A DNA stretch of 64,000 bases, from assembly GCF_021491375.1 (NCBI RefSeq), contig NZ_JAKEVY010000002.1:558001-622000 (forward strand). The letters are read 5' to 3'. Made by a program: the position numbers and the translations under genes. Source of the DNA: Flavihumibacter fluminis (GTDB lineage: Bacteria > Bacteroidota > Bacteroidia > Chitinophagales > Chitinophagaceae). Positions within the stretch are counted from its first letter, which is position 1, and every line of letters begins with the position of its first letter. The notes under the pieces were generated by a model, which ran no database searches, was not told the DNA's origin, and worked only from the letters and a program-made list of their open reading frames with translations. Shown piece after piece: positions 4,789-59,009 of the stretch.

Positions 4789-4830
4789 GTGAGAAGTGAG
4801 ATGTGAGACGTGAAAAGTAAAACATGAAAT
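4789..4830 (+). repeat. Heptad array A, six units, downstream of the small-subunit gene
   Basis: Six consecutive 7-bp units (GTGAGAA, GTGAGAT, GTGAGAC, GTGAAAA, GTAAAAC, ATGAAAT) begin 4 nt after the stop codon of the upstream gene, in sense orientation, and end exactly where the terminator hairpin begins. It belongs to the (GTGAGAC)n family found behind six other genes in the window. It has no open frame of its own, because a 7-bp period shifts the frame. Confidence 0.85.
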
Positions 4831-4864
4831 AAAAATACCCGTCGGTTAGCCGACGGGTATTTTT
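4831..4864. terminator. Bidirectional Rho-independent terminator
   Basis: Perfect 15-bp arms 4831-4845 and 4850-4864 around a TTAG loop. The arms begin with A5 and end with T5, so the structure can terminate both the sugar-oxidation operon (+) and the histone-like gene (-), which converge on it. Confidence 0.9.
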
Positions 4865-4880
4865 GTAGGTATAAAAGTGA

Positions 4881-5375
4881 TTATGCTTCTGCACTACCTT
4901 CTGCTGGTGCGGTAGTTCCTTCTGCTGCCGGAGCTTCTACTACAGGAGCTGCGGGTGCTGGGGCTGGAGCTTGTTTTTTTACAGATTTGCGGGCTGCTTT
5001 CTTAGGGGCTGCCTTTTTCGCTGCTTTTTTAGGAGCTGCTTTCTTTACTGCCTTTTTTGGGGCTGCCTTCTTAGCGGCCTTCTTCGCTGCCTTTTTGGGT
5101 GCTGCTTTTTTTGCTGCCTTTTTGGGTGCTGCCTTCTTAGCTGCTTTTTTTGCTGCTTTCTTAGGAGCTGCTTTTTTAGCTACCGCTTTTTTCAGTGCTT
5201 TTTTAGCTGCCTTTTTAGGAGCTGCTTTTTTAACCGCTTTTTTAACTGCTTTTTTAGGAGCTGCCTTCTTAGCTGCTTTTTTTGCTGCTTTCTTAGGGGC
5301 TGCTTTTTTAGCTACCGCTTTTTTTACTGCCTTTTTGGCCGGTGCTTTTTTAGCGGCCTTCTTTTTGGTGGGCAT
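4881..5375 (-). CDS. Histone H1-like Lys/Ala-rich DNA-binding protein
   Basis: A 164-aa, extremely basic, low-complexity protein made of tandem KKAAPKKAAKKA-type units (about residues 3-135), with a short acidic, Ala/Pro/Glu-rich tail (VEAPAAEGTTAPAEGSAEA). This composition is that of bacterial histone H1-like proteins (Hc1/AlgP-type tails), which bind and compact DNA non-specifically in the nucleoid. There is no globular domain, so the function comes from composition only. The DNA repeats make the gene prone to unit-number changes and to assembly error. It ends just before the bidirectional terminator and is transcribed away from fusA. Confidence 0.75.
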   Translation of the reverse strand: MPTKKKAAKKAPAKKAVKKAVAKKAAPKKAAKKAAKKAAPKKAVKKAVKKAAPKKAAKKALKKAVAKKAAPKKAAKKAAKKAAPKKAAKKAAPKKAAKKAAKKAAPKKAVKKAAPKKAAKKAAPKKAARKSVKKQAPAPAPAAPVVEAPAAEGTTAPAEGSAEA

Positions 5376-5559
5376 ATTAAACTGTGATTTTTAGTGAAAT
5401 AATGGGTTAACAAGATTGATTTCTAAATTTACATCCCTTGTGCATATCTACCAATATGTCAGTGCTTTTTGAGCAACTATTTTTTTATATAAGGCGGAAT
5501 TTGGGGAATCGGACCATTATCAGGCCCGAAACTTAATTTTTTGGTAGTAGTAAACAAGG

Positions 5560-5590
5560 TTTCATATTTCCGGGAGAATACTTACCTTTG
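5560..5590 (+). promoter_or_regulatory. Promoter of fusA
   Basis: TACCTTTG at 5583-5590 matches the Bacteroidota -7 consensus TAnnTTTG exactly; TTTC at 5560-5563, 19 bp upstream, fits the -33 TTTG box with one mismatch. It predicts an untranslated leader of about 55-60 nt before the fusA ATG at 5653. Confidence 0.75.
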
Positions 5591-5652
5591 CGTCCCAAAT
5601 TAGGTTTTTTGGGTATTTCAACCGTTAGACTTAACATTTTTAACATACAACA

Positions 5653-7797
5653 ATGGCAGACTTAAGATTTCAAAGAAACTTTGGTATTGCGGCCCATATC
5701 GATGCCGGTAAGACCACTACAACAGAGCGTATTCTGCGCTACACAGGTATGATCCACAGAATCGGTGAAGTGCACGATGGTGCGGCAACAACCGACTGGA
5801 TGGAGCAGGAGAAGGAGCGTGGTATTACCATTACTTCCGCTGCTGTAAGCTGCCAGTGGAATTTCCCAACTAACAAGGGACAGGTAACACCTGACTCTAA
5901 AAAATATTCTTTTAACATCATTGATACCCCAGGTCACGTGGACTTTACTGTTGAGGTGGAGCGTTCCATGCGTGTTCTGGATGGTTTGATCGCCCTGTTC
6001 AGTGCAGTTGATGGTGTTGAACCTCAGTCTGAAACAGTTTGGCGCCAGGCAAACCGCTACAAAGTTCCCCGTATCGGATTCGTTAACAAAATGGACCGTT
6101 CCGGTGCCGACTTCCTGAATGTGGTAAAGCAGGTTAAAGAAATGTTGGGTGCGAAAGCGGTTCCACTTCAGTTACCAATTGGTGCTGAAGACAATTTCAA
6201 AGGTGTGGTTGACCTGATCAAAATGAAAGGGATTATCTGGCACGCTGAAACAGAAGGTATGACCTTTGACGAAATTGAAGTACCTGCTGATATGGTGGAA
6301 GAAGCTAATGAATGGAGAGGAAACCTCGTTGAAGCAGTAGCTGAATATGATGATACCCTGATGGAGAAATTCTTCGAAGATCCCAATTCCATTACTGAAG
6401 CGGAAATGCATGAAGCCATTCGTAAGGCGACCATCGACCTTAGCATCGTTCCAATGATGTGTGGTTCTTCTTTCAAAAACAAAGGAGTACAAACTGCGCT
6501 GGATGCGGTATGTCGTTACCTGCCAAGTCCGGTTGATATTGACGCGATTGAAGGTACTCATCCTGAGACAGGTGAAACCATTTCCCGTAAGCCGGATGCG
6601 AAAGAGCCTTTTGCAGCTTTGGCTTTCAAGATCATGACAGACCCATTCGTAGGTCGTCTGGCCTTCTTCCGGGCCTATTCTGGTCACCTTGATGCAGGTT
6701 CCTATGTTTTAAACGTGCGCAGCGGTAAGAAAGAGCGTATCAGCCGTATCATGAAAATGTTTGCCAACAAACAAAACCCCATTGATTTTATCGAAGCAGG
6801 TGATATCGGAGCGGCAGTAGGTTTCAAGGAAATCAAGACCGGTGATACCCTTTGCGATGAGAACCATCCGATTACACTGGAGAACATGTTCATTCCAGAG
6901 CCTGTAATCGCTGTAGCGGTTGAGCCTAAAACGCAGGCAGACGTGGATAAAATGGGTATGGCTATTGCGAAACTGGTAGAAGAAGATCCTACCCTGCGTG
7001 TAAATACCGATGAAGAAACAGGTCAAACAATTCTGCGCGGAATGGGTGAATTGCACCTGGAGATCATCATCGACCGTATGCGTCGTGAATTTAAAGTAGA
7101 AGTTAACCAGGGTAATCCCCAGGTAGCTTATAAAGAAGCATTTACCGGAAAAGTTGAACACCGCGAAACGTTGAAAAAGCAAACCGGTGGTCGTGGTAAA
7201 TTCGCCGATATCTATTTCGAACTCAGTGCCGCTGATCAGGACTGGTTGGAAGCAAATCCTGGAAAGGGCTTCCAGTTTGTGAATGATATCTTCGGAGGAT
7301 CTATTCCTAAGGAATTCATTCAGCCTATCCAAAAAGGTTTTGAAGCCTCTATGACAAATGGTGTACTGGCCAACTACCCTGTAGTAAACATGAAAGTGCG
7401 CATTTTCGATGGTAGCTTCCACGCGGTGGACTCCGATGCGATGTCTTTCGAACTCTGTGCAAAGCAAGGCTTCCGTGAAGCTGCCCGCAAAGCTAAACCG
7501 GTATTGCTGGAGCCAATCATGAAAGTGGAAGTTGTTACTCCAGACCAATACATGGGTGATGTTACAGGTGACCTGAACCGTCGTCGTGGTATGATGGAAG
7601 GTATGGATAGCCGTAACAATGCGCAGGTTATTAAAGCAAAAGTTCCACTGAGTGAAATGTTCGGATACGTAACGCAATTGCGTTCTTTGTCATCCGGCCG
7701 CGCTTCCTCAACCATGGAATTCTCTCACTATGCTCCTGCTCCGAATAACATTGCAGAAGAAGTGATTGCCAAGATCAAAGGAAAAGTAAACGCTTAA
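5653..7797 (+). CDS. fusA: Elongation factor G
   Basis: A 714-aa translational GTPase that drives ribosomal translocation and, with RRF, ribosome recycling. G1 AHIDAGKT is at residues 14-21; switch [11 protein letters not shown]3 DTPGH and G4 NKMD follow, then domains II-V with the domain IV motif [11 protein letters not shown]. The length is normal for bacterial EF-G. It has its own promoter and a terminator directly behind it, so it is monocistronic. In many bacteria it sits in an rpsL-rpsG-fusA-rpsJ order; here rpsL and rpsG are not beside it, and 5.8 kb of unrelated genes separate it from rpsJ. Confidence 0.97.
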
Positions 7798-7801
7798 TAG
7801 T

Positions 7802-7825
7802 AAACCGGCTTCGGCCGGTTTTTTT
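7802..7825 (+). terminator. Terminator of fusA
   Basis: 8-bp stem AAACCGGC / GCCGGTTT around a TTCG tetraloop, followed by a T run; it starts about 4 nt after the fusA stop codon. Confidence 0.9.
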
Positions 7826-7878
7826 ATGTTATTTTATTAAATGCATCAATGTTGCATAAATAATTAGCCCTCTTCCTC

Positions 7879-7910
7879 TTGACAATGTGGGAATCTCTAG
7901 ACTACTTTTA
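7879..7910 (+). promoter_or_regulatory. Promoter of the first secreted paralogue
   Basis: TTGACA at 7879-7884, an 18-bp spacer, then TACTTTTA at 7903-7910 (one mismatch to TAnnTTTG). The same arrangement with the same spacer recurs at 9447-9478 before the paralogous gene. Downstream leader blocks TGATTCCAA, CCGTACC and AAAGCCAGT are also shared. The leader would be about 130 nt. Confidence 0.6.
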
Positions 7911-8042
7911 CACGTGATTCCAAGTCAACTTTAGAAAATCCCTCCTTAGAAATTACCCCTCCAGAAAACAGATTCTCGTTACCGTACCATTCATCCTTCC
8001 AAAGCCAGTCGAATACAAGTTTTTAACCTAAACCTGGCTTAT

Positions 8043-9347
8043 ATGCTTACTACTTTTACACGTCTTCAGCAACTTAAAAAAATGACTGTGCTGTTGCTGG
8101 CACTCTTTATCGGGCTTTCACCCGTCATTGCCCAGAACAATAATCAGGGTCCCAACAATGATAATTGTTTGGATACCGAATATGAATGGGGATATGACCG
8201 CCTCCACAAAAAATGGCACAAATACAAAAAAGATCGCAAAAGGAACAAATTCAAGTGGAATGTATTTAATCCCAGCAAACCGGAACTGTTTTACAGTTTC
8301 ACGCAGGATTTTTATGGTAACACAAGGGAAAGAGCTTGTACGCCAGATGGCCGAAACCTGAGTTCATTGGAAATCATGGATATGAGCATGGGCAACATGT
8401 ACTATCAGACATTGTTTTTTGGCTATCTTGAAACTGACCGCTATTTCTACGCGTATCAAAGCGAAGCTGCCAAATTACAAAAACTCTTACCTGGCAAAGG
8501 TCCGAATACCCTTGTAGATGGAATTTACAGTGTTGATTGGAATACACCCTTAAAAAGGGGTAAAATTAATAACAGCCTCCTTGCAGAAACGATCACGCTC
8601 GCATTGAATATGAACCTTACTCCTGATCGGGTATTGGAAGATTTTCCACTGGAAGCCGGGCGTTGGCTGGTAACACAGGCAAAAGATCCAAGATCAGCCT
8701 GTAACAAACCCCGTATGATGGATTGTGGCTGGAATGGTAATTCAAAAAAGGCAATTGATTCCTGGCGCATACCGGCCAATGTGGTAAATGCCCTGGGAGA
8801 AGATAAAACCGTTTGGGGATTATTCTGTCTTGCAGGCTTTACAATCACAGGACGTCCGATTCCGGAAGGTGTTTCGTTGAAAGATATTGAAGAAGCAGTG
8901 GAGGCAATAAATGAAGCATTTCACGAAGGACGCTATTTTATCGGTTGGTCAGACCGGAATGTAAATTGTGCAAACTACTGGTATTACAAATGGACTGCTG
9001 CTTTCTATCATTGGTATGGCGGTGGTCAGAATTCCGGAATCAATACGGATGAATCTGTAGCAAAAGCAATACCGGAAATTACTGCCACAGAAGTGAAGGC
9101 ATTCCCGAATCCTTTTGTTGACAGAGTTAATTTCCAGATTAAATCAAATGCTGATGGACCGGTTTTGGTAGAAGTATACAATACAGCCGGACAAAGACTT
9201 GAATTGCTTTACAATGGAAACATGAGAAAAGGTGAAACAAGGAACTTCGTTTATATTCCCAGGCAGGGAGGAACTGAAGCGGTAATCTATAGGGTTACAA
9301 CAAACGGTAAAACATTCTCTGGTAAACTTATTAAACGACTGAGATAA
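8043..9347 (+). CDS. Secreted protein of unknown function with T9SS sorting domain
   Basis: A 434-aa protein with a signal peptide (hydrophobic MTVLLLALFIGLSP, cleavage after IAQ) and a C-terminal type A sorting domain from about residue 350 (KAFPNPFVDRVNFQI ... VYNTAGQRLELL ... SGKLIKRL), predicting export through the type IX system. The central part (about 190-325) contains LALNMNL, GRWLVTQ, SWRIPANV and INEAFHEGRYFIGWSD, which align block by block with the next gene. Several cysteines (ACNKP, MMDCGW, NVNCANYW) suggest disulfides. I do not recognise a catalytic motif. ATG 8082 is a possible later start. Confidence 0.7.
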   Translation: MLTTFTRLQQLKKMTVLLLALFIGLSPVIAQNNNQGPNNDNCLDTEYEWGYDRLHKKWHKYKKDRKRNKFKWNVFNPSKPELFYSFTQDFYGNTRERACTPDGRNLSSLEIMDMSMGNMYYQTLFFGYLETDRYFYAYQSEAAKLQKLLPGKGPNTLVDGIYSVDWNTPLKRGKINNSLLAETITLALNMNLTPDRVLEDFPLEAGRWLVTQAKDPRSACNKPRMMDCGWNGNSKKAIDSWRIPANVVNALGEDKTVWGLFCLAGFTITGRPIPEGVSLKDIEEAVEAINEAFHEGRYFIGWSDRNVNCANYWYYKWTAAFYHWYGGGQNSGINTDESVAKAIPEITATEVKAFPNPFVDRVNFQIKSNADGPVLVEVYNTAGQRLELLYNGNMRKGETRNFVYIPRQGGTEAVIYRVTTNGKTFSGKLIKRLR

Positions 9348-9362
9348 CGGTTAACTACAAAC

Positions 9363-9393
9363 GAAAGGAGTTGTCTTCGGGCGACTCCTTTAT
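9363..9393 (+). terminator. Terminator behind the first secreted paralogue
   Basis: 12-bp stem AAAGGAGTTGTC / GGCGACTCCTTT, with two G-U pairs, around a TTCG tetraloop. The T tract is short (TTTATTT). Confidence 0.75.
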
Positions 9394-9446
9394 TTCACTT
9401 TTTTTATTGCACATGGTGGTTGTCTGAAATATTTAAATTCAATCAC

Positions 9447-9478
9447 TTGACAATGCGGTTAATTTAGTAGTATTTTTA
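9447..9478 (+). promoter_or_regulatory. Promoter of the second secreted paralogue
   Basis: TTGACA at 9447-9452, an 18-bp spacer, then TATTTTTA at 9471-9478. Box sequences and spacing match the promoter at 7879-7910, and the following leader has the same TGATTCCAA, CCGTACC and AAAGCCAGT blocks, so promoter and leader were probably duplicated together with the gene. Confidence 0.6.
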
Positions 9479-9604
9479 TATCTGATTCCAATCTTCCTTT
9501 CAAAGCCTTCTAAAAAGAAAACTGACCAGCCGGTCCCCTTCCGTACCCAAGATCCCTCGTAAAGCCAGTTGAGTATTGATTTACATTCCATTAAATGTAC
9601 CGAC

Positions 9605-10774
9605 ATGGCCTTTAAACTATTTTCCCGCCTGAACAGGCGTATCTGTTTTGCAATTGCACTACTTTATCTGCTGAGCAATAACCTGTTTGCTCAAAATGCT
9701 GTTGATTTATCGGCACGTACTTCCCATGGCAGAAAAGCTTCCTGGATATCAGTTGAACATCTTTCTGTTTTCAACTCAGAAAAGGAGACAGGGAAGTATG
9801 ATAAGGCGGTAAGCCAGGGTGCTACCATATTATTTAAAACGCAATCTCCTGCAAAATACGCCAGGCAAACAGAAATACTGAGTGCAGAATTAAAGGATTG
9901 GAAAGGGGTTGAGCTTCGATCTGGTAAAGGAGTTCAGTTACTTACGCTCCAGCCAGATCAACTCATTAGTCTGCAATCTCTGCTGATGGGAAAAGTGTAT
10001 GATCCTACTTTTTTAAGGCAGGAGATTCTGTATACTGAAAATCTTTCACAGTCCTCCTTAAACCGGGAATTACTAAGCCAGGTGCTGGCTCTTCAACTTA
10101 ACCGGATGGTTATGAAAAATGAACTACTGGAAGAGTTTCGTATTGAATTTGACTCCTGGCTGGTTACACAACAAATGGACTTTTCAGGAAAAGAGTTAAG
10201 TCCTGGTGGAATGCCTTGTGGAAATGGGATGGATTCCAGGGTAGTGTATTCCTGGAAGTTTCCGACATCACTTCAGTCAATTCTCGGAACAGATAATACC
10301 GTTCGTGGTTTACAGGACCTTGCTGTGGAGGTTTTGGCAGGGAGCCGGTCGGTGTCTAAGTCGCAGGTTGAAGATATACTGCAGGGAGTCCGGATCATTA
10401 ATGAAGCCTTTGAATCTGGCAGGTATCTGCTGGGCTGGAGTGATCAGTTTATTACCTGTTCCAATAGCTGGATTCTGCGTTGGAAAATAAAGACACCTGC
10501 TCTTGAAGTGCCAGTGAGAGAAGATTCCTATACAACAAGGGCTAGTTTGAAAACTAAAGGAGGAGAGATTCGGTTAGAAGTGGATGCATTGGAAAGTTCA
10601 CGCGTGCTGATTGAATTATATACAGAAAGGGGGAGCAGGATAAAAAAATTCTATCATGATCGTTTAGACAAGGGAGCGCAATTGTCTTTTTTGATTGATA
10701 AGACTGGCGTTGCAGACGTTTTGATTTATAAAGTAACGGCCGAAGGAAGAACCTATTCGGGACTGATTCCCTAA
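9605..10774 (+). CDS. Secreted paralogue of the upstream protein, reduced sorting domain
   Basis: About 389 aa from ATG 9605 (MAFKLFSRLNRR), the start that gives a proper signal peptide ending LFAQ; an in-frame start at 9569 would only add 12 residues. The central region matches the preceding protein: ALQLNRM, DSWLVTQQ, SWKFPTSL, IINEAFESGRYLLGWSDQ, CSNSWILRWK. The C-terminal beta domain (VLIELYTERGSRIKKFY ... IYKVTAEGRTYSG) resembles a sorting domain but lacks the usual FPNP opening and the basic last residues, so T9SS export is uncertain. The DPP IV-like gene follows after 24 bp. Function unknown. Confidence 0.65.
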   Translation: MAFKLFSRLNRRICFAIALLYLLSNNLFAQNAVDLSARTSHGRKASWISVEHLSVFNSEKETGKYDKAVSQGATILFKTQSPAKYARQTEILSAELKDWKGVELRSGKGVQLLTLQPDQLISLQSLLMGKVYDPTFLRQEILYTENLSQSSLNRELLSQVLALQLNRMVMKNELLEEFRIEFDSWLVTQQMDFSGKELSPGGMPCGNGMDSRVVYSWKFPTSLQSILGTDNTVRGLQDLAVEVLAGSRSVSKSQVEDILQGVRIINEAFESGRYLLGWSDQFITCSNSWILRWKIKTPALEVPVREDSYTTRASLKTKGGEIRLEVDALESSRVLIELYTERGSRIKKFYHDRLDKGAQLSFLIDKTGVADVLIYKVTAEGRTYSGLIP

Positions 10775-10798
10775 CTTCAGGTCCCAATACTGAAGTTC

Positions 10799-12979: not shown

Positions 12980-12990
12980 CAGGTTGGAAA

Positions 12991-13563: not shown

Positions 13564-13580
13564 AATAGTTGGAAAAATCT

Positions 13581-13611
13581 TTTGTTGATTATGAAATGAC
13601 CGTTACCTTTG
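13581..13611 (+). promoter_or_regulatory. Promoter of the S10 ribosomal protein operon
   Basis: TTTG at 13581-13584, a 19-bp spacer, then TACCTTTG at 13604-13611: both boxes fit the Bacteroidota consensus (-33 TTTG, -7 TAnnTTTG) exactly. The predicted leader is about 25 nt before the rpsJ ATG at 13642. Confidence 0.85.
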
Positions 13612-13641
13612 CACTCCCAATTCAATTTTTGGATAATAGGT

Positions 13642-14930: not shown

Positions 14931-14950
14931 ACCATTTAATCTGAAGTACG

Positions 14951-15912: not shown

Positions 15913-15918
15913 GAGTAG

Positions 15919-15946
15919 GTGAGACGTCAGACGTGAAACGTGAGAC
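15919..15946 (+). repeat. Heptad array B, four units, behind rplW
   Basis: GTGAGAC, GTCAGAC, GTGAAAC, GTGAGAC in direct succession, in sense orientation, 6 nt after the rplW stop codon and inside the ribosomal protein operon. Same family as the array at 4789-4830. The remaining 70 bp before rplB show no promoter or terminator. Confidence 0.85.
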
Positions 15947-16017
15947 GAAAAACCGAATAGAAACAAGAATAATTAAAGTAGTGCGACGCTGAAAAGTTCG
16001 CAGCAAAAAATAAGAAG

Positions 16018-18371: not shown

Positions 18372-18398
18372 GTAGACGTGAGACGTGAGACGTGAGAA
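18372..18398 (+). repeat. Heptad array C, three full units plus a 6-bp unit, behind rpsC
   Basis: GTAGAC (one base short), then GTGAGAC, GTGAGAC, GTGAGAA, in sense orientation, 7 nt after the rpsC stop codon. It lies in an 83-bp gap before rplP, again within the ribosomal protein operon. Confidence 0.8.
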
Positions 18399-18447
18399 GA
18401 CTTTACAGAATCTGATTTTAAAAAGAACATTGACAAATTAATATAAG

Positions 18448-18867
18448 ATGTTACAGCCAAAAAGAACAAAACACAGGAAGATGCAGAAGATGCCTGTGAA
18501 AGGCAATGCAAAACGTGGCACCAGCCTGTCCTTTGGTTCCTTCGGTCTGAAAGCGCTGGAAACAGTGTGGATGACGGATCGCCAGATTGAAAGTGCCCGT
18601 CAGGCAATGACCCGTTCCATGAAGCGGGAAGGAAATGTCTGGATCCGCATTTTCCCTGATAAAATCGTTACCAAGAAGCCCGCTGAAGTAAGGATGGGTA
18701 AAGGTAAAGGTAACCCTGATCATTGGGCTGCTGTAGTAAAGCCCGGTCGTATTCTGTTCGAGTGCGACGGCGTTTCTGAAGAGGTAGCAAAGACCGCAAT
18801 GGAACTGGCTGCTCAGAAATTACCGATTAAAACAAAGTTTGTAGTTCGTCGTGAACTGCAATCCTAA
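18448..18867 (+). CDS. rplP: 50S ribosomal protein L16
   Basis: A 139-aa late-assembly protein near the A-site t[18 protein letters not shown] is the typical basic N-terminus; [21 protein letters not shown] and [20 protein letters not shown] are family motifs. The length is normal. It is 26 bp from rpmC. Confidence 0.97.
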
Positions 18868-23437: not shown

Positions 23438-23458
23438 GTGAGATGTGAGACGTGAAAC
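23438..23458 (+). repeat. Heptad array D (sense part), three units, behind rpmD
   Basis: GTGAGAT, GTGAGAC, GTGAAAC in sense orientation, 6 nt after the rpmD stop codon. Together with the antisense units at 23475-23537 it can fold into a long hairpin in the mRNA between rpmD and rplO. Confidence 0.8.
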
Positions 23459-23474: not shown

Positions 23475-23537
23475 ATTTCACATCTCACGTTTCACATCTC
23501 ACATTTCGCCTTTCGCCTTTCACTTTTCACTTTTCAC
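23475..23537 (-). repeat. Heptad array D (antisense part), nine units, before rplO
   Basis: Nine uninterrupted 7-bp units read on the minus strand as GTGAAAA (twice), GTGAAAG, GCGAAAG, GCGAAAT, GTGAGAT, GTGAAAC, GTGAGAT, GTGAAAT. It is the longest array in the window and the only one not in sense behind a gene. It ends 45 bp before the rplO start. Confidence 0.8.
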
Positions 23538-23582
23538 ATTAATGCGAGGGGTGATTCCCCGAAAGTTTAAAATCAGAAAAAC

Positions 23583-48541: not shown

Positions 48542-48568
48542 TTTACACTTTCTTATGTTAATTTATTC

Positions 48569-48610
48569 TTCTCACATCTCACGTCTCACATCTGACGTCT
48601 CACGTCTCAC
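48569..48610 (-). repeat. Heptad array E, six units, behind the DoxX gene
   Basis: Reading the minus strand from the stop codon of the DoxX gene: GTGAGAC (twice), GTCAGAT, GTGAGAC, GTGAGAT, GTGAGAA. It starts 5 nt after the stop codon in sense orientation. It lies between this gene and the thioesterase gene, 27 bp before the latter's start. Confidence 0.85.
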
Positions 48611-48615
48611 ATTCC

Positions 48616-49023
48616 TTACCTTCCCATCATGCGGTCGAGAGAGGCTCTTCCAGGGCCAACCAGCAGGATGGAAAGAAAACCAACAAGGAAAAGTGCCGCT
48701 TTTTCTCCTTCCTTAATGTCATGGTTATGCGCAATAAAAAAGGCTACGCCCATTGCAATTACAAGCGGGATAGCTGCCAGCCGGGTAAACAATCCCGCCA
48801 TGATCAGCAGACTGCAAAACACTTCAGCAAAGATGACGAGAATCAGCGACCAGTCGGATCCGATATGAAAAGGATCGCTGAATTTGCTCTGCAGACTTGG
48901 GTATTTTGTTAATTTCTGAAAACCATGATCAACCAGCATTAAACCTCCGAAAGTAATTCGCATCAAAAAGCTCATAGTATCAAATGCCCATTCCTGGTAG
49001 CTGGTGGAAAGTAGTTTTTTCAT
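48616..49023 (-). CDS. DoxX-family membrane protein
   Basis: A 135-aa protein with four membrane segments. RITFGGLMLVDHGFQKLTK and ILVIFAEVFCSLLIMAGLFTRLAA match the DoxX family, members of which are linked to sulfur or redox metabolism; no reaction can be assigned. I chose ATG 49023 (MKKLLSTSYQEW), because the -7 element TATTTTTG (49045-49038) lies downstream of the alternative ATG 49050. The heptad array E follows the stop codon. Confidence 0.85.
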   Translation of the reverse strand: MKKLLSTSYQEWAFDTMSFLMRITFGGLMLVDHGFQKLTKYPSLQSKFSDPFHIGSDWSLILVIFAEVFCSLLIMAGLFTRLAAIPLVIAMGVAFFIAHNHDIKEGEKAALFLVGFLSILLVGPGRASLDRMMGR

Positions 49024-49037
49024 TCTGGATTTTTTGC

Positions 49038-49045
49038 CAAAAATA
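49038..49045 (-). promoter_or_regulatory. -7 promoter element of the DoxX gene
   Basis: Minus-strand TATTTTTG, an exact consensus, 15 nt before the ATG at 49023; it predicts a leader of about 9 nt and decides the start codon. Confidence 0.6.
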
Positions 49046-49176
49046 GGCACTCGACAGAAAGAATTGTTAATGATTTCAATTATCCACAGTTGTTTGGAAC
49101 GTTATTTGGTCAGGATTAAAATATTTGAAAACTTTACCCGGTTTCAAGTGGCCTTTGAAAATAAAATCAACAACAA

Positions 49177-52209: not shown

Positions 52210-52231
52210 ATCAACTAAAGAAAGTATTTCC

Positions 52232-53884
52232 ATGAGCATTATTCAGGTAATTGGAAAATCGCTGGTAGTGGGAGCAGGGTTATTATCCCTGGGACTATGC
52301 GCAATGGCACAGGATAGCAGCAAAAGAAAAACCATTGATATAACCTCCACCTTTAAACCGGTTTTGCGGGATGCGGTAAAGCTTAACTTTTCAGCCGCAC
52401 AGCCGGCACTTGATACCACCAGGCCGGTTTTGGGTTATTCCATACCCGTTCAGCAGGTTAAATTGCCATACCAGCCGGGAACCTTGAAACCGGTTGCCAT
52501 GCAGATTGACTCTTTGGTGCCCTGGAAGAATAGCCAGTATGTAAAAGTTGGCGTGGGCAACAATCATATTCCCTATGCACAGGCAGGATTCAGTTTTGGT
52601 GAAGGCAAAGCATCATACCTGAATTTGTATGGAGAAGTATTCGCAAGTAAAGGAAAGCTTGATTTTCAAAAGCATAATATGGCGGAAGTCAGAGCCCGAG
52701 CCGGACAAATGCTAAATCAAAATCATCAGGTATCGGCAACGGTTGGTTTCAAAGGGGAAGATTATTTCTTATACGGCTACCGGCCAACTACACTGGATTT
52801 CACCAAACGTGAATTACGGCAGCAGTTTCAGACACTGGATGGTGAAGTTACCTTACGCAATACCAATCCTACGGAATTTGGATTGAGTTATCAGCCAACT
52901 GTAAGGGTTGTATCCTTCCGTCACAATAATGCCGACAGCAGTGCCCGGGAACAGAATTTCGTATTTAAGTTACCGGTTCAGAAAACCTTTGGAAAAAGTT
53001 TTGGTATTAACCTGGCATTTACCGGAGACCTTACAAATTATAAGGCAGATGGAAAATCAACCATCAAAAACAACCTGTTTCAACTGGCGCCCTCGCTTTT
53101 GTTGAAAACACCGAATGTATCTATTCAAACAGGCATCCTTCCGTCCTGGGATAACAAGGTGTTCCATATGTTGCCCAATATCCTGGCAGACTTTACCACC
53201 AACGACAAGCAGTTTACCTTCCAGGCCGGTTATATCGGATATTTCAATAAGGGAAGTATGCAGCGATTTTCAACCATCAATCCCTGGATTGCACAACCCG
53301 ATCAATTGCTTAACACCCGGGTAGTGGAACTATATGGTGGAATTAAAGGGGTGCTGGCGCAACATTTTACCTACAACGCCAAATTGGGTGTACAGAAACA
53401 ACGGAATGTAAACCTTTTTGTAAATGACCTGCGAGATGGTAAAACCTTTTTAACGGTGTATGCCCCTGAAATGGATGTTGTAACAGTGCACGGTGAAATA
53501 GGGTATCATAAAGGAGAGAAGTTAACATTTACCTCCGGAATTACGTACAATAATTTCGTCGATGTGGAAGGACAGGAAAAAGCATGGGGACTGTTCCCTC
53601 TAGAAGTAAATGCAAGCCTTCGCTGGAAAATCATTGATGATCTGTATTTCAAAACAGATTTCATCGGTTGGGATGGTCCTGCTTACCGGAATCAATCCGG
53701 ATTGGCATTTAAAGGAGATAAGGCGTTTGACCTCAGTTCCGGATTGGAATTCAAGGTTACTAAATCCATTGATCTCTGGTTACAAATGAATAATATCCTG
53801 AACAATCGGTATGAGCGCTGGAACCAATACCAGGTGTATGGTTTCAACGTGCTGGGAGGGGTGATTTTGAGATTGAACCGCTAA
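52232..53884 (+). CDS. Outer-membrane beta-barrel protein, TonB-receptor-like
   Basis: A 550-aa protein with a signal peptide (cleavage after CAMAQ). The N-terminal segment DITSTFKPVLRDAVKLNFSAAQP leads into a barrel made of many alternating amphipathic strands rich in Tyr/Phe, with a terminal strand NVLGGVILRLNR. There is no clear plug or TonB box. Its position behind the TPR gene and before the HU-CCDC81 gene suggests a common envelope complex. The substrate or partner is unknown. Confidence 0.75.
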   Translation: MSIIQVIGKSLVVGAGLLSLGLCAMAQDSSKRKTIDITSTFKPVLRDAVKLNFSAAQPALDTTRPVLGYSIPVQQVKLPYQPGTLKPVAMQIDSLVPWKNSQYVKVGVGNNHIPYAQAGFSFGEGKASYLNLYGEVFASKGKLDFQKHNMAEVRARAGQMLNQNHQVSATVGFKGEDYFLYGYRPTTLDFTKRELRQQFQTLDGEVTLRNTNPTEFGLSYQPTVRVVSFRHNNADSSAREQNFVFKLPVQKTFGKSFGINLAFTGDLTNYKADGKSTIKNNLFQLAPSLLLKTPNVSIQTGILPSWDNKVFHMLPNILADFTTNDKQFTFQAGYIGYFNKGSMQRFSTINPWIAQPDQLLNTRVVELYGGIKGVLAQHFTYNAKLGVQKQRNVNLFVNDLRDGKTFLTVYAPEMDVVTVHGEIGYHKGEKLTFTSGITYNNFVDVEGQEKAWGLFPLEVNASLRWKIIDDLYFKTDFIGWDGPAYRNQSGLAFKGDKAFDLSSGLEFKVTKSIDLWLQMNNILNNRYERWNQYQVYGFNVLGGVILRLNR

Positions 53885-53945
53885 TCTGATAAGTATTTTT
53901 TGACGGGTCAGGTAAAATTCGGTTTTTTGTCCGATTGGAACCTGT

Positions 53946-54602
53946 ATGGAAAGACTGGATGTATTAACCAATTATTTATTGCAACAAAAGCGAATCAGCA
54001 TTCCTGGTTTGGGCACGCTGCATATGGAGCGGGTACCGGCAAGAACAGATTTTGTGAATGCCCGGATTCTTCCGCCTTTGTACAGATTCCGGTTCGATCA
54101 ATATTTTGATGCGCCGGATAAAGACCTGTTTGGTTATTTGTCCAACCACCTGGGTATACCGGATTTTGAAGCTGTAAAATGGTACAATGAATTTGCCTAT
54201 GCATTACGGTCCAAAATCAGGAATAACGAATCTGCAGCATGGCCCGGACTGGGAAGTTTTGTTTCAGATGATAAAGGTGAAATAACATTCGAAACTGAGA
54301 AGCCTTCTTTTGATCTTCCGGATCCGGTTCCGGCTAACAGGATCATACACGAACACACGGAGCATGCAATTCTGGTTGGAGACCGTGAAGTGGTGGTATC
54401 TGATCTTACGGAAAGATCGTCCGAGGCAGTTTTCATTGAAAGGGGTTCCTGGTGGATCTATGCATTGATTATCGCGGCGCTGGCATTGATTGCCATCGGG
54501 TACCATTACTTCCTACAGGATGCTGGTCAACAAAGCGGGGGAAGCCAGCAGAAAGTTCCGGCCTACCAAATGCCCTCCACCAGCAGAACTATTAATAACT
54601 AG
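53946..54602 (+). CDS. HU-CCDC81 domain membrane protein
   Basis: A 218-aa protein: two HU-CCDC81-like domains (about 1-55 and 56-120), with ISIPGLGTLHMERVPARTDF and AAWPGLGSFVSDDKGEITF, then a linker, a single membrane segment (WWIYALIIAALALIAIGYHYF, about 168-188) and a short Ser/Gln-rich tail. Bacterial proteins of this family carry such domains in the cytoplasm next to a membrane anchor; they may bind peptidoglycan or DNA, the function is not settled. The gene is the third of the envelope operon, and the methyltransferase gene begins right behind its stop codon. Confidence 0.85.
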   Translation: MERLDVLTNYLLQQKRISIPGLGTLHMERVPARTDFVNARILPPLYRFRFDQYFDAPDKDLFGYLSNHLGIPDFEAVKWYNEFAYALRSKIRNNESAAWPGLGSFVSDDKGEITFETEKPSFDLPDPVPANRIIHEHTEHAILVGDREVVVSDLTERSSEAVFIERGSWWIYALIIAALALIAIGYHYFLQDAGQQSGGSQQKVPAYQMPSTSRTINN

Positions 54603-54603
54603 T

Positions 54604-55503
54604 ATGGGATCGATTCATATTACTGCATGCCCGGTTTGTTCTGGTGGTAACATTCACCCGGTAGTAGAACTCCAGGATTTCTCGGTATCCAAACAGGCAT
54701 TTGCGATATGGGAATGCGAACAATGTAGTTTTCGCTTTACGCAGGATATCCCTGATCAGGCGGCCATCACCCCTTATTATAAATCTGAAAATTATGTATC
54801 ACACAGTGATACCAATAAGGGATTGATAAATCGGTTATACCATCTCGTTAGACGATTTACTTTAAGAGGCAAACGTACTTTGGTAGAAAGGGAGAGCGAA
54901 AAAAAATCCGGCCGGTTGTTGGATGTAGGAGCAGGTACTGGCGCTTTTCTTATGGAAATGAAAGCTGCCGGCTGGGATATAACTGGTCTTGAGCCGGATG
55001 CGGATGCAAGAAAACTGGCGCAAACTAAAACAGGTTTGTTGCTTCAGGAGCCGGATACACTGTTTCGACTACCTGCTGAAAACTTCGATGTTATCACGCT
55101 TTGGCATGTGTTGGAACATGTTCATGCATTACATGAATATCTGGATCAGTTTCATAGTTTATTGAGGAAGGATGGTGTTTTACTGATTGCAGTACCCAAT
55201 TATACCTCCGGTGATGCGCACCATTATCAGCAATATTGGGCGGCTTACGATGTGCCGAGACACCTGTATCATTTTTCTCCCAGGGCGATGCGCACACTAA
55301 TGGGAAAACACCACTTCAGTGTGCTGCGAATACTGCCAATGTGGTTTGATAGTTTTTATGTAAGTATGCTGAGTGAAACCTATCGGAAGGGCAAATCCAA
55401 CCTGACTGCAGCTTTTTGGCAGGGATTGAAATCCAATCTTGCTGCCATGGGGGATCGTGAGAAAGCGAGTTCCCTTATTTATGTTATCAAAAAAACTAGT
55501 TGA
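54604..55503 (+). CDS. SAM-dependent methyltransferase with zinc-ribbon N-terminus
   Basis: A 299-aa protein starting at ATG 54604 one nucleotide after the previous stop codon. ITACPVCSGG and WECEQCSFRF form a CxxC...CxxC zinc ribbon (residues about 8-42), followed by a class I methyltransferase domain with LLDVGAGTGAFL (motif I) and ITLWHVLEHVHA. This architecture is typical of Bacteroidota methyltransferases next to envelope genes; the substrate is unknown. The 3' end overlaps the convergent glutaminyl cyclase gene by 8 bp. Confidence 0.85.
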   Translation: MGSIHITACPVCSGGNIHPVVELQDFSVSKQAFAIWECEQCSFRFTQDIPDQAAITPYYKSENYVSHSDTNKGLINRLYHLVRRFTLRGKRTLVERESEKKSGRLLDVGAGTGAFLMEMKAAGWDITGLEPDADARKLAQTKTGLLLQEPDTLFRLPAENFDVITLWHVLEHVHALHEYLDQFHSLLRKDGVLLIAVPNYTSGDAHHYQQYWAAYDVPRHLYHFSPRAMRTLMGKHHFSVLRILPMWFDSFYVSMLSETYRKGKSNLTAAFWQGLKSNLAAMGDREKASSLIYVIKKTS

Positions 55504-56344
55504 ACCGAACTTCCAGAAGTACCGGCCAGAGTTTGCCGGTAATATAGATTTTCCCGGAGGCAGGATCATAGGCAATTCCATTTAATACAGCATCTCCGTT
55601 ATTGTAATCGGTATTGGGAAAGTACTGTTGTTTCATAGAATCCAACATGCCAGATAAATCAGCCCGGGCTATCACCTGTCCGTTTGAAGGATCTATTTTC
55701 AGGATATGATTGGTTTGCCATTTATTCGCATAGATATAACCGTTGATATACTCCAGTTCATTCAGGTTATTAACCGGACCGTATTGATCGGTAACACTTA
55801 GTATGCGGGCAGTTTTAAAGTCAGCTGGATCAAGAAAATACAGATTGCTGGAACCATCGGATAGAATCAGGTGGGTGCTGTCGTGGGTGAGTCCCCATCC
55901 TTCGGTTTTGATCTGGAACTCGCCTGTTTTTTTGAGCGTGGCCGGGTCGTATATAAAGCCTTTTTTTTCGGTCCAGGTAACTTGAAATAATTTATCCTGG
56001 AATACGGTAATTCCTTCACCAAAATAATCCTTGTCAAGTGGCTGGGTGGATATAGCTTTTCCTGAGCCAAGATCTATTTTGGAAATTTTGGATGTATAAT
56101 CATTCACACCCGGTTTACCTCCCGTGCCTTCCAGCAATTGTCCCTTATATACAACTAACCCCTGGACATAGGAACTTGCATCATGCGGAAAAACATTCAC
56201 CGTATTTACCTGCATGGTTGCAGGAGCGGGCAGATTATTGGAGGGAAGCTGCTGGCTATTTTCTGCAGGCTGCGGAGCATTGTTGCAGGCGCTTGCCAGA
56301 AAGCAAACCAGCATCGCGAAAAATGAGTTCTTTTTCATAGACAT
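55496..56344 (-). CDS. Glutaminyl-peptide cyclotransferase, lipoprotein
   Basis: A 282-aa five-bladed-propeller enzyme of the glutamine cyclotransferase family that turns N-terminal Gln into pyroglutamate. The signal peptide ends LVCFLASAC, with the lipidated Cys near residue 20. Propeller motifs are FPHDASSYVQGLVVYKGQLL, LDKDYFGEGITVFQDKLFQVT, EGWGLTHDSTHLILSDGSS and NELEYINGYIYANKW. The first ATG (56344) is 6 nt from a -7 element; the second (56338, MKKNSFF) is equally possible. Confidence 0.88.
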   Translation of the reverse strand: MSMKKNSFFAMLVCFLASACNNAPQPAENSQQLPSNNLPAPATMQVNTVNVFPHDASSYVQGLVVYKGQLLEGTGGKPGVNDYTSKISKIDLGSGKAISTQPLDKDYFGEGITVFQDKLFQVTWTEKKGFIYDPATLKKTGEFQIKTEGWGLTHDSTHLILSDGSSNLYFLDPADFKTARILSVTDQYGPVNNLNELEYINGYIYANKWQTNHILKIDPSNGQVIARADLSGMLDSMKQQYFPNTDYNNGDAVLNGIAYDPASGKIYITGKLWPVLLEVRFN

Positions 56345-56349
56345 GAAAG

Positions 56350-56357
56350 CAAAGGTA
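56350..56357 (-). promoter_or_regulatory. -7 promoter element of the glutaminyl cyclase gene
   Basis: Minus-strand TACCTTTG, an exact consensus, whose last base lies 6 nt from the ATG at 56344, so transcription should begin at or just before that codon. No clear -33 box is seen. Confidence 0.6.
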
Positions 56358-56543
56358 GGATGCCCAAAGCTTCCATTCGTCTAAAAAACGCTAAAAAAGG
56401 GCCATTAATCTTTGAATTTCAACTAAAAAGCAGTTGTTTTACAGTTCTTCATCGAATATCCTCTGACCATTACTGTCGAAATCTACCCAATGAATTGCTG
56501 TTGATCCACGCTATGATTGGCCGTCCAAACAATCGATTTGTTC

Positions 56544-57764
56544 ATGAGACGGATTCTGGTACTCTTAATAATATTGATCATACCTGCCCTTATATTCGCC
56601 CAGAAAGCGTGTGTACAGGACGGCTCTCCCCTTATTGCCAATTCTTCCTTCTCTATATCACCTGCAGTTTCATCTTCTCCGCTTGCTCCGATTTTTGAAA
56701 TTCCTGCTCGCATAACGGTTCCCGTTGTGGTGCATATTCTTGAGTCTGCTGCATTCTCTGTTTCTGATGAACAGGTACAATCTCAGCTCGATGCGCTCAA
56801 CCGTGATTTTCAGGCAGCAAACGCTGACCTGGTAAGGGTTCCGGATCGCTTTAAACACCTGGTGGCCAATTGCAATATCCGCTTTGAGCTGGCCAAAGTG
56901 GATCCATCCGGAGAGCCTACATCAGGAATCGTTCGTGTAAAAGCCGGGGTAAACCAATTCTCTCTTGATAACCGGATCAAGTTTCGCTCCAGAGGGGGAT
57001 CCGATGCCTGGCCTGCTGCTCATTACCTGAATATCTGGGTTGGCAATATGGTGAGTGGTATAATGGGGTATTCCAGTATGCCCGGGGACGCACCAGAGCT
57101 GGATGGCGTGGTATTAAATCACACGATATTTGGCACATTGAATAAAAGAGGAAGATATACACTCGGGCGGGTGGCTGTGCATGAGGTCGGTCACTGGTTA
57201 GGCCTCAAACATATCTGGGGAGATGCTTATTGCGGTGATGATGGAATTGCCGATACCCCACCTCAAAAAAGTTATAATCGCGGTTGTCCTTCGGGTATTT
57301 TAAATTCCTGCGGAAATGATCCTAACGGTGATATGTACATGAATTACATGGATCTCACAGATGACAGTTGCATGTATATGTTTACCCTTGGGCAACGGGA
57401 AAAAATGCGTTCGGTATTTGCGGCTGGTGCACCAAGAAACAGCATTCTCGCCGGACTGGCGTTACAAACAGATGGAGATCCAATTGACCCGGAATGGGGA
57501 CTGCCGGACCCTGCCAGCATAAAAGCACAACCCTTACAGGTATTCCCTGTACCAGCCTCAACTGAAATCAGGGTTGAGATTTCGGATTACGAAACACTCA
57601 AACAGAAGCAATTATTCATTTATAACATGATGGGTCAACAACTAATGCAGGTGCCCATCCGCAGCAGCCAGGTGATCATTCTTATTGGCAAACTGGCACC
57701 TGGTCAATACCTGATTAAAACGGACAGGCCAGACCAGGCAGTGGGGAGGTTTGTGAAAATGTGA
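56544..57764 (+). CDS. Secreted M43 (pappalysin-like) zinc metalloprotease with T9SS domain
   Basis: A 406-aa protein with a signal peptide (MRRILVLLIILIIPALIFAQ). The catalytic zinc motif HEVGHWLGLKH holds H213, H217 and H223 with E214 as general base, and YMNYMD downstream supplies the Met-turn. A C-terminal sorting domain (VFPVPASTEIRVEI ... QLMQV ... GQYLIKT) predicts type IX export. ATG 56544 gives a proper signal peptide; 56517 would add nine residues. The stop codon TGA forms part of the first heptad of array F. Confidence 0.88.
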   Translation: MRRILVLLIILIIPALIFAQKACVQDGSPLIANSSFSISPAVSSSPLAPIFEIPARITVPVVVHILESAAFSVSDEQVQSQLDALNRDFQAANADLVRVPDRFKHLVANCNIRFELAKVDPSGEPTSGIVRVKAGVNQFSLDNRIKFRSRGGSDAWPAAHYLNIWVGNMVSGIMGYSSMPGDAPELDGVVLNHTIFGTLNKRGRYTLGRVAVHEVGHWLGLKHIWGDAYCGDDGIADTPPQKSYNRGCPSGILNSCGNDPNGDMYMNYMDLTDDSCMYMFTLGQREKMRSVFAAGAPRNSILAGLALQTDGDPIDPEWGLPDPASIKAQPLQVFPVPASTEIRVEISDYETLKQKQLFIYNMMGQQLMQVPIRSSQVIILIGKLAPGQYLIKTDRPDQAVGRFVKM

Positions 57765-57818
57765 GACGTATGGAAGTGAGACGTATGGAAGTGAGACGTC
57801 AGACGTGAGACGTCAGAT
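57761..57818 (+). repeat. Heptad array F, six heptads and two octamers, behind the M43 gene
   Basis: GTGAGAC GTATGGAA GTGAGAC GTATGGAA GTGAGAC GTCAGAC GTGAGAC GTCAGAT. The stop codon TGA (57762-57764) lies inside the first unit, so the array touches the gene itself. The duplicated 15-bp unit GTGAGACGTATGGAA shows local slippage or duplication. The array is 40 bp from the IS481-like element. Confidence 0.85.
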
Positions 57819-57859
57819 GCACTTAGGAAGAATTGTGGATGCCATAGATAAAAGTAAAG

Positions 57860-58903
57860 TGTATTAGCTACGACTTAATCTGACAGTTAGGGTTAACTTT
57901 AGAGTAACTACAAACCAAAGTTTAACCCCTTAAAACTGTCAGAAATGAAAGTAGAAACTAAGTTAATCAAAACAAAGTTAGGTTTACTGCAATTAGCCGA
58001 GCAGTTAAACAACGTTACGCAAGCTTGTAAGTACATGGGCTATAGCCGGGCAATTAAGAGCCAGCAATGAGCTGCGCAAGATCGGTGTGTTCATCTCTGC
58101 TGCGGGTATCCGATGTGTATGGCAACGGCATGACTTGGAGACTTTCCCGAAGCGTTTGAAGGCGTTAGAAGCCCGTATGACCCAGGAAGGAATTGTTCTT
58201 ACAGAAGCCCAAATGATGGCACTGGAGCGTAAGAAGGAGCAACGGGAAGCCCATGGTGAAATTGAGACAGAACACCCGGGTTACCTGGGATCACAGGATA
58301 CCTACTATGTTGGAAATATCAAGGGTGTAGGGCGGATTTACCAACAGACATTTATTGATACCTACAGCCGGGTAGCTTTTGCGAAACTCTATACTTCCAA
58401 ACATGCTATTACGTCGGCTGACATCCTGAATGATTGTGTAATCCCCTTCTTCGAGCAACATCAAATACCGCTGTTGCGGGTTCTGACTGACCGCGGAACG
58501 GAGTATAACGGGAAGCCAGAACACCATGAATATGAGCTGTATTTACAACTGGAAGAAATAGAGCATAGTAAAACTCAGGTGCGCCATCCTCAGAGCAATG
58601 GAATCTGTGAACGCTTACACAGAACAATGAAAGATGAGTTTTACTCCGTAGCGTTCAGGAAAAAGATGTACGATAACTTAGAGCTTCTTCAGCAAGACCT
58701 CGACAGCTGGCTTCAGTTCTATAACAATGAACGAACACACTCTGGAAGATACTGCTATGGCAAAACGCCTATGCAGACTTTTTTAGAATCATTACCTTTA
58801 GCTAAAGAAAAGCTGATCCAATATCCGGAATCAGCTTAACTATATCCTAACCCTATAAAACTAAAAAAAACCTTGATTGTCAGATGAAGTCCTAACTATT
58901 ACA
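57860..58903 (+). mobile_element. IS481-family element with internal deletion
   Basis: Imperfect terminal inverted repeats run from TGTATTAGCTACGACTT (57860) to the complement TGTAATAGTTAGGACTT (ending 58903); they share GACTTxATCTGACA and begin TGT, as in IS481. The element is 1044 bp. Its transposase gene is broken, so it cannot move by itself. No convincing target duplication is seen at the ends. It sits between two heptad arrays and 2 bp from a terminator hairpin. Confidence 0.75.
57945..58839 (+). pseudogene. IS481-family transposase, internally deleted and frameshifted
   Basis: The N-terminus (MKVETKLIKTKLGLLQLAEQ to YMGYSR) is read from 57945 and runs into a TGA at 58068. From about 58048 the correct reading continues in another frame as GQLRASNELRKIGVF. 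The helix-turn-helix linker between YMGYSR and GQLRASNEL is missing, perhaps 60-75 codons, judged from the family's usual length of about 350 aa. The catalytic core is intact: FIDTYS (D91), LTDRGTEY (D135) and GICERLHR (E175), numbered from 58087. The junction contains CCGGG, possibly a microhomology. Confidence 0.8.
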
Positions 58904-58905
58904 AG

Positions 58906-58936
58906 AAAAGGCTGCACTCAACAAGTGCAGCCTTTT
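58906..58936. terminator. Hairpin terminator at the lpd end
   Basis: AAAAGGCTGCACT (58906-58918) pairs with AGTGCAGCCTTTT (58924-58936), a perfect 13-bp stem. In the minus direction it follows the lpd gene and array G and ends with T4. In the plus direction it lies behind the IS element. The structure is strong, but T runs are short on both sides. Confidence 0.7.
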
Positions 58937-58953
58937 GTTATTATGTTCCTTTC

Positions 58954-59009
58954 GTCTCACATCTCACATCTCACATCTCACATCTGACGTCTCACGTCTC
59001 ACGTCTCAC
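58954..59009 (-). repeat. Heptad array G, eight units, behind lpd
   Basis: Reading the minus strand from the lpd stop codon: GTGAGAC (three times), GTCAGAT, GTGAGAT (three times), GTGAGAC. It starts 4 nt after the stop codon, in sense orientation. It is the longest sense array of the window and is followed by the terminator hairpin. Confidence 0.85.

What the first reader, a model, noticed from the sequence alone, without database searches (positions are those of the whole stretch)
4789..59009. Dispersed heptanucleotide arrays locked to the 3' side of genes
Seven genes are followed by tandem arrays of a 7-bp unit, consensus GTGAGAC with G/C at position 3, A/G at 5 and C/T (or A) at 7. The sense arrays are 4789-4830, 15919-15946, 18372-18398, 23438-23458, 48569-48610 (-), 57761-57818 and 58954-59009 (-). 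In all seven the array is sense to the upstream gene and begins 0-7 nt after its stop codon, on either strand and with no relation to gene function. Period, orientation and distance are read directly from the sequence. Heptameric short tandem repeats are known from cyanobacteria (STRR sequences), but I know of no described counterpart placed this way in Bacteroidota. A 3'-UTR function (mRNA stability, termination assistance, protein or RNA binding) or a targeted insertion process is inference.
Basis: partly seen in the sequence, partly recalled or inferred. Interest (0 to 1): 0.85.

Follow-up and report, generated by a model that had tools for sequence, protein, structure and literature searches.

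The report
Species-dialect heptamer arrays bordering bacterial genes
This soil-bacterium genome carries many short runs of a seven-letter DNA word placed beside gene ends in a fixed order and direction; related species keep the layout but use other words, which points to a shared process or function that nobody has yet explained.

Summary
The arrays are real. The host is a Flavihumibacter (Chitinophagaceae). In a 1.2 Mb census 29 of 51 arrays begin -25..+20 nt from a sense stop codon (random placement: mean 3.5, maximum 8 of 200). The better rule is geometric: 43 of 51 lie nearer their 5' neighbour, and opposite-strand close pairs face inward (10 of 10). Intergenic tandem repeats are almost all period 7. 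Units are ordered: GTC is first in 0 of 51 and second in 24. Against F. cheonanensis no clear array was gained or lost in 95 aligned spacers, yet array letters are rewritten, at two measured sites in both arms. Farther congeners show empty sites or other words (GTGAATR, GGTRAAC). Rehm 2015 reports nearly this placement for GGGNATC in Xanthomonas and Nostoc, so this is a new variant of a known kind; GTGAGAC has no G-tracts, so quadruplexes cannot be the general cause. Purely local slippage, RT or REP-transposase writing and obligatory hairpins are disfavoured. Preferred but unproven function: a directional boundary, rut-like (C>G) only when read antisense into the gene (20 of 26 array ends versus 25 of 336).

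The parts
4789..4830 (+). heptamer array, 6 units, 4 nt after the stop of a Gluconate_2-dh3 gene
4831..4864 (.). terminator-like hairpin directly after the array (array lies between stop and hairpin)
   Evidence: read from the sequence; the hairpin is nearly unchanged in G001 while the array differs
15919..15946 (+). heptamer array, 4 units, 6 nt after the L23 stop
   Evidence: array of other units in G010 and G009, none in G008, G002, G004
18378..18398 (+). heptamer array, 3 units, 13 nt after the called S3 stop (imperfect unit from 18372)
   Evidence: GTGAATR array at the same place in G002
23438..23458 (+). left arm of the L30-L15 inverted pair, 3 units, 6 nt after the L30 stop
23475..23509 (-). 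right arm of the L30-L15 pair, 5 units, antisense to both genes; degenerate units to 23537.
   Evidence: RNA fold z -3.9
48569..48610 (-). heptamer array, 6 units, 5 nt after the stop of a DoxX-family gene
   Evidence: no array in the short spacers of G008, G009, G002, G004
57761..57790 (+). two 15-bp units GTGAGACGTATGGAA; the first unit's TGA is the stop codon of a Peptidase_M43 gene
57791..57818 (+). heptamer array, 4 units
58906..58936 (.). terminator-like hairpin beyond the 58954-59009 array
   Evidence: read from the sequence
58954..59009 (-). heptamer array, 8 units, 4 nt after the stop of a Pyr_redox_2 family gene

Best explanation
SHOWN: these are dispersed, ordered heptamer modules (head GTGAGAC, then often GTCAGAC, tail GTGARAA) that start at gene boundaries and point into the spacer, singly or as inward-facing pairs. 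The layout is shared by related bacteria that use other 7- or 8-letter words, and array contents turn over quickly at retained sites. INFERRED, origin: a new array is copied in from other arrays, because a local seed is not visible at the empty site examined; it is then reshaped by slippage and by template switching between arms. INFERRED, function: the array is a directional boundary. Transcribed with its own gene it is a G>C, purine-rich RNA. Transcribed antisense, by read-through from the facing gene or from stray promoters, it is a C-rich, G-poor RNA of the kind on which Rho loads, so transcription would be stopped before it invades the gene from its 3' end. Many unit sequences would serve, which would explain the dialects. 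My odds: about 0.9 for the class (heptameric dispersed repeats like those of Xanthomonas/Nostoc), about 0.3 for the Rho-boundary function.
For: 29 of 51 arrays lie at sense stops against a random mean of 3.5. Convergent spacers hold 25 of 51 arrays with about 13% of the bases in spacers of 25 nt or more, divergent spacers 1 of 51 with about 28%. 43 of 51 lie nearer their 5' neighbour. Opposite-strand pairs under 400 bp: 10 inward, 0 outward in C11; by eye in capped listings, 10 and 0 in G001, 4 and 0 in G018, 3 and 0 in G002. Order: GTC first 0 of 51, second 24 of 51, more extreme than all 5000 within-array permutations. Antisense 78-nt windows with C/G>2 and regularly spaced C: 15 of 18 convergent and 5 of 8 tandem array ends, against 11 of 79 and 14 of 257 ends without arrays; read in the sense direction 1 of 18 and 1 of 8. 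The 40 nt beyond the array are also G-rich (G 0.30-0.32, C 0.13-0.15, against about 0.2 and 0.2). Arrays accompany terminator-like hairpins, 11 of 15 against 15 of 39. A Rho RNA-binding domain is encoded. Copy-in: arrays in G000 and G001 after the gene at 48616-49050, none in G008, G009, G002, G004. Template switching: a loop is inverted between G000 and G001 at C21:629858, score 23, 0 of 2000 shuffles reach it.
Against: The rut-like signal follows largely from array composition, and no expression data were available. The convergent-specific G>C skew falls from 0.187 to 0.087 in C11 when array ends are removed, turns to -0.038 in the 11 remaining ends of G000 C21, and is absent in G005 and G018. 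In the other family loci stop-adjacent arrays are nearly balanced (G>C 24, C>G 20 of 48); the polarity is strong there only beside starts (50 to 7 of 63). A right arm inside a ribosomal-protein operon (L30-L15) would put a rut-like tract on the sense mRNA, which looks harmful unless the hairpin masks it. Many arrays are shorter than 78 nt. Gene calls come from my own dicodon caller, not curated annotation. Only 1.2 of 4.71 Mb was in the census.
Confidence: 0.33

Rival explanations
1. Non-functional heptameric microsatellites. Slippage favours period 7, template switching homogenises the arms, and arrays persist only where they do no harm: after stops, and before starts in the G-poor orientation. 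Placement is a tolerance filter.
For: Period 7 dominates intergenic tandem repeats in C11: 48 against 0 at periods 3-6 and 4 at period 8. Rapid content turnover: median spacer identity 0.73 for 8 array spacers, 0.97 for 82 spacers without. Slippage for heptamers is cited as a hypothesis in Rehm 2015. A loop inversion.
Against: Does not explain inward polarity in convergent spacers, which have no starts, nor the fixed unit order, nor one dialect at many loci, nor arrays at a site with no local seed.
Confidence: 0.3
2. REP-like RNA hairpins: inverted arms fold in the mRNA, protect upstream mRNA from 3' exonucleases or act as bidirectional terminators.
For: 42 of 70 folded L30-L15 spacers from the family have z<-2 with different sequences. 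9 of 10 convergent array spacers have z<-2 against 4 of 11 controls. Both arms change together at the two sites measured.
Against: Only 19 of 51 arrays have an inward partner. Tandem array spacers are not more structured than controls: median z -0.17, n=16, against -0.46, n=78. Canonical terminator-like hairpins are usually present as well.
Confidence: 0.15
3. Back-up stop codons: TGA every 7 nt closes all three frames after read-through or frameshift.
For: In 12 of 51 arrays the first unit's TGA lies at the -4 position and serves as the stop. In C11 stop-adjacent arrays carry 134 stops outward against 68 inward.
Against: No excess in the other family loci: 135 observed, 150 expected from unit shuffles; only a modest excess in C11 (134 against 113). 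GGGAATC of Xanthomonas has the same placement but no stop triplet (motif from PMC4692102; my reading of its frames).
Confidence: 0.05
4. A mobile element or enzyme writes the arrays: MITE-like ends, REP/RAYT transposition, or a reverse transcriptase with a repeat template.
For: Inward pairs with conserved outer heads resemble terminal inverted repeats. Empty sites exist in congeners. The motif occurs in 20 of 147 family genomes and 17 of 100 genera.
Against: No RVT_1 match in G000, G001, G010 or G012. No Y1_Tnp match in G000, G010 or G012, one sub-threshold match in G001. No clear gain or loss in 95 aligned G000/G001 spacers. 32 of 51 arrays are unpaired. Target-site duplications were not tested.
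Confidence: 0.12

Closest known systems
GGGAATC / GGGGA(C/T)T heptameric repeats of Xanthomonas and Nostoc (Rehm et al. 2015, PMC4692102; passages and sections 10, 15, 16 seen)
   Same: Period 7; dispersed and intergenic; 0-50 bp after stops on the coding strand, some overlapping stops; nearer the 5' neighbour whatever its direction; inward inverted pairs (70 cases in Xcc, 75 in Xac); few in divergent spacers; rapid variation between close relatives; function unknown.
   Different: Unit lacks G-tracts, so no quadruplex; a fixed order of unit variants; unit words differ between congeners at the same sites; other phylum.
TAACTGA direct repeats of Beggiatoaceae, cyanobacteria and five Bacteroidetes (MacGregor 2015, PMC4679880; passages and section 12 seen)
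   Same: Heptamer direct repeats, intergenic, patchy across phyla.
   Different: Mostly just before start codons, one nearly invariant word; a translational role is proposed.
Cyanobacterial STRR sequences (Calothrix heptanucleotides; recalled, and mentioned in a passage of PMC4692102)
   Same: Dispersed tandem heptamers.
   Different: Placement rule not compared here.
REP/BIME elements with RAYT transposases (recalled)
   Same: Dispersed extragenic repeats 3' of genes, inverted pairs.
   Different: Not a tandem heptamer; the Y1 transposase was not found in G000.

Membership tests
Dispersed heptameric SSRs of the Xanthomonas/Nostoc type | tandem unit of 7 nt, mainly intergenic | tested here: met
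   period 7: 48 intergenic and 2 coding segments in C11
Dispersed heptameric SSRs of the Xanthomonas/Nostoc type | close to the 5' neighbour, coding strand after stops | tested here: met
   43 of 51; 29 of 51 at sense stops
Dispersed heptameric SSRs of the Xanthomonas/Nostoc type | inward inverted pairs, depletion between divergent genes | tested here: met
   10 inward and 0 outward pairs; 1 of 51 arrays divergent
Dispersed heptameric SSRs of the Xanthomonas/Nostoc type | G-tracts able to form G-quadruplexes | tested here: not met
   none of the 12 commonest units (GTGAGAC, GTCAGAC, GTGAAAG and so on) except GGGAGAC, 4 of 298 units, has GGG
REP / RAYT | Y1 (TnpA_REP-like) transposase in the genome | tested here: not met
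   PF01797: no match in G000
RT-templated repeats (retron/DRT-like) | reverse transcriptase gene in array-bearing genomes | tested here: not met
   PF00078: none in G000, G001, G010, G012
MITE | terminal inverted repeats | tested here: inconclusive
   19 of 51 arrays have an inward partner, 32 have none
MITE | target-site duplication | not tested
   outer ends often abut stop codons
Rho-dependent terminator (rut) | 78 nt with C>G and regularly spaced C | tested here: met
   antisense strand, 20 of 26 array ends with C/G>2; composition only, and a simplified form of the published rule (PMC6407284, passages)
Rho-dependent terminator (rut) | termination that depends on Rho | not testable with these tools
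   no transcript data

The most novel reading that the evidence does not exclude
Bacteroidota, and independently Xanthomonas and cyanobacteria, run an undescribed process that writes short ordered modules of a genome-wide 7- or 8-nt word beside gene boundaries with fixed polarity, and later rewrites all arms in a new word, without any known transposase or reverse transcriptase; the product is a sequence-relaxed antisense-transcription barrier.
Probability: 0.15. Interest if true: 0.88.

Novelty: new variant of a known kind. Interest (0 to 1): 0.62.

Why it matters
It separates the architecture (period 7, boundary placement, inward polarity) from any one sequence, so the quadruplex explanation offered for Xanthomonas cannot be the general one. 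It gives a testable idea of what these unexplained repeats do, a polarity test that can be run with RNA-seq, and a hypervariable marker at retained sites. If copying into sites next to stop codons is confirmed, a dispersal mechanism remains to be found.

Tried and rejected
Rejected or weakened: strictly 'sense after stop'; obligatory RNA hairpin; back-up stop codons as a general rule; RT writing; REP transposase; array as replacement of the terminator; purely local slippage (one clear site). G-quadruplex was excluded from the unit sequences. Flank comparison for a longer common element found mostly array-against-array matches, one near-duplicated region (1181309 and 1188566) and one 2-copy noncoding region. 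Rfam: no match at gathering scores in the window; the sub-threshold matches are mostly eukaryotic miRNA models and were disregarded. Paper searches on heptamer repeats with Bacteroidetes, intergenic, Chitinophaga, Flavihumibacter and related words listed no description of such arrays in Chitinophagaceae; only listings were seen apart from the three papers named. One search (Rho, antisense, convergent, Bacteroides) listed nothing.

Limits and dropped rows: own gene caller; a first, poorer version was replaced. 71 of 78 loci L086-L163 (those over 8 kb) were used. 70 of 78 L30-L15 spacers were folded; shuffles are first-order resampling, not exact dinucleotide shuffles. 18 of 20 phylum stretches were used, and the period-7 arrays came from 3 of them. 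Of 19 strict arrays in the G000 C21 stretch, 17 had both anchors in G001. Of 7 window array sites, 3 gave no ortholog in the congeners, and two 'array' counts for G008 there are artefacts of N runs. The period table for C11 printed counts N runs and is not used. C11 holds 11,074 N. The E. coli control is 50 kb only. Both-arm rewriting was measured at 2 sites.

Full report
Observation. The seven arrays are in the window at the stated places, with small corrections and one missed antisense array. The window lies in contig C21 of a 4.71 Mb genome. The upstream genes range from ribosomal proteins (L23, S3, L30) to redox enzymes, DoxX and a peptidase, so no common function is visible.

Census. I took 1.2 Mb of contig C11 as contiguous stretches, called genes with my own dicodon caller and found 51 arrays of at least 3 units. 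29 of 51 start -25..+20 nt from a sense stop; 200 random placements in intergenic space gave a mean of 3.5 and a maximum of 8. The commonest distance is -4 (12 arrays): the stop codon is the TGA of the first unit. Three arrays lie beside a stop in antisense. By context 25 are in convergent, 15 in tandem sense, 10 in tandem antisense and 1 in divergent spacers. The rule that fits best is that an array lies next to its 5' neighbour whatever that gene's direction (43 of 51) and points into the spacer; opposite-strand pairs closer than 400 bp are 10 inward and 0 outward. A few start right after a terminator T-tract rather than a stop, for example C11:843688 and C21:629858.

Period and order. Intergenic tandem segments in C11 number 48 at period 7, 0 at periods 3-6 and 4 at period 8; shuffled spacers gave 0 at period 7 in three runs. 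In 71 other Chitinophagaceae loci there are 36 at period 7, 39 at period 8 and at most 1 at any other period from 1 to 13; these loci all surround secY, so they sample one neighbourhood. In 18 stretches from other Bacteroidota families there are 10 at period 7 and 1 at period 8, none at 1-6 or 9-13, but the 10 come from 3 genomes. Within arrays GTC is never first (0 of 51), is second in 24, and position 7 of the last unit is A in 26; 5000 within-array permutations did not reach these values for first, second or last A.

Distribution. GTSARAY x3 is found in 4 of 15 genus, 20 of 147 family and 8 of 80 phylum genomes, counts that include G000. G002, without this word, has its own: GGTRAAC x3, 26 hits, in 1 of 15 genus genomes, with inward pairs. 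The L30-L15 spacer shows many words at one site across the family. 42 of 70 folded spacers there have z below -2.

Turnover. In a 224 kb stretch compared with G001, 95 spacers could be aligned: 8 array/array, 2 array/weak, 1 weak/array, 1 weak/weak, 1 weak/none, 82 none/none, so no clear gain or loss (19 had no anchor, 1 was not collinear). Array spacers are 0.73 identical, the others 0.97 (medians). At the two sites measured, arms resemble each other within a genome more than their counterparts in the other genome, with one comparison close (local scores 21/28, 25/28, 16/21, 21/28 within; 15/28, 13/27, 12/21, 17/28 between). At C21:629858 the loop is inverted between the species. Farther out, four window sites could be followed. 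After L23 an array is present in G001, G010 and G009, absent in G008, G002 and G004. After S3 arrays of other units occur in G010 and G002, none in G004 or G005. In L30-L15 arrays or inverted arms occur in G001, G010, G009, G008 and G002, none in G004, and an unrelated inverted repeat in G005. After the DoxX gene an array occurs in G001 but not in G008, G009, G002 or G004, whose short spacers show no GTGA or TCAC seed.

Function. Single arrays are common (32 of 51 have no partner, none has an outward one), and tandem array spacers are not unusually structured, so a hairpin is not the shared property. Stops are not enriched beyond unit composition outside G000. Arrays accompany terminator-like hairpins (11 of 15 convergent array spacers against 15 of 39). 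What is shared in G000 is strand asymmetry: leaving the boundary, arrays read G>C (32 of 37 beside stops, 11 of 15 beside starts). A simplified rut rule from PMC6407284 marks the antisense strand of 20 of 26 array ends, 25 of 336 ends without arrays, and the sense strand of 2 of 26. I therefore prefer a directional, Rho-related boundary, at about 0.3. Against it: the signal is largely composition; the skew is much weaker when array ends are removed and absent in G005 and G018; in other family loci the asymmetry beside stops is nearly balanced (24 to 20 of 48). Neutral microsatellites are nearly as likely, but do not explain polarity or order.

Known kinds. Rehm et al. 2015 report for GGGAATC in Xanthomonas and GGGGAYT in Nostoc the same placement, pairs and divergent depletion, with function unresolved. 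GTGAGAC lacks the G-tracts, so it is not a member of that quadruplex family but works in the same geometry. TAACTGA repeats sit mostly before starts. No RT, and no Y1 transposase above the cut-off, was found in the array-rich genomes G000, G001, G010 and G012. Verdict: new variant of a known kind, with an unexplained dispersal step.

Noticed in passing
window 23544-23582, and L15 leaders of L069-L163: A conserved element GCGAG(stem-loop)CG..AAGT..AAAATC before rplO in 73 of 83 loci, with varying stem sequences (GGG, CCCG, CAGTTT, CTCCG and others; no stem by my strict rule in 9). No Rfam match at gathering score. Possibly an undescribed r-protein leader; covariation not formally tested.
   Followed up: partly
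window 15913-16017 and 18399-18480: Other conserved stretches before L2 and L16 starts (such as TTAAAGTAGTGCGACGCTGAAAAGTTCGCAG) persist across congeners while the neighbouring array changes.
   Followed up: no
window 4881-5375 (-): 164-aa ORF built of 12- to 66-bp tandem repeats, no Pfam match; it looks like an Ala/Lys-rich histone-H1-like protein (my reading). A similar repeat lies near C11:843,500.
   Followed up: no
window about 57870-58839: Looks like a degraded insertion sequence (TCTGACAGTT / AACTGTCAGA ends, transposase-like start), judged by eye only; it lies next to the 57761 array.
   Followed up: no
C11:464650-464998 (L032) and C11:1086561-1086930 (L063): Two copies, 76% identical, of a noncoding region downstream of arrays, with a strong terminator-like hairpin and repeated TGAGCCAATTA motifs. 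No convincing Rfam match in L063.
   Followed up: partly
C11 (L009-L068): A second heptamer family, AATTATG / GAATTAT, in 6 period-7 segments.
   Followed up: no
G001:C110:371807-371843 region versus G000:C21:629858: Loop between the arms inverted between the two species, a possible mark of template switching. The G001 coordinate is approximate, derived from the synteny.
   Followed up: partly
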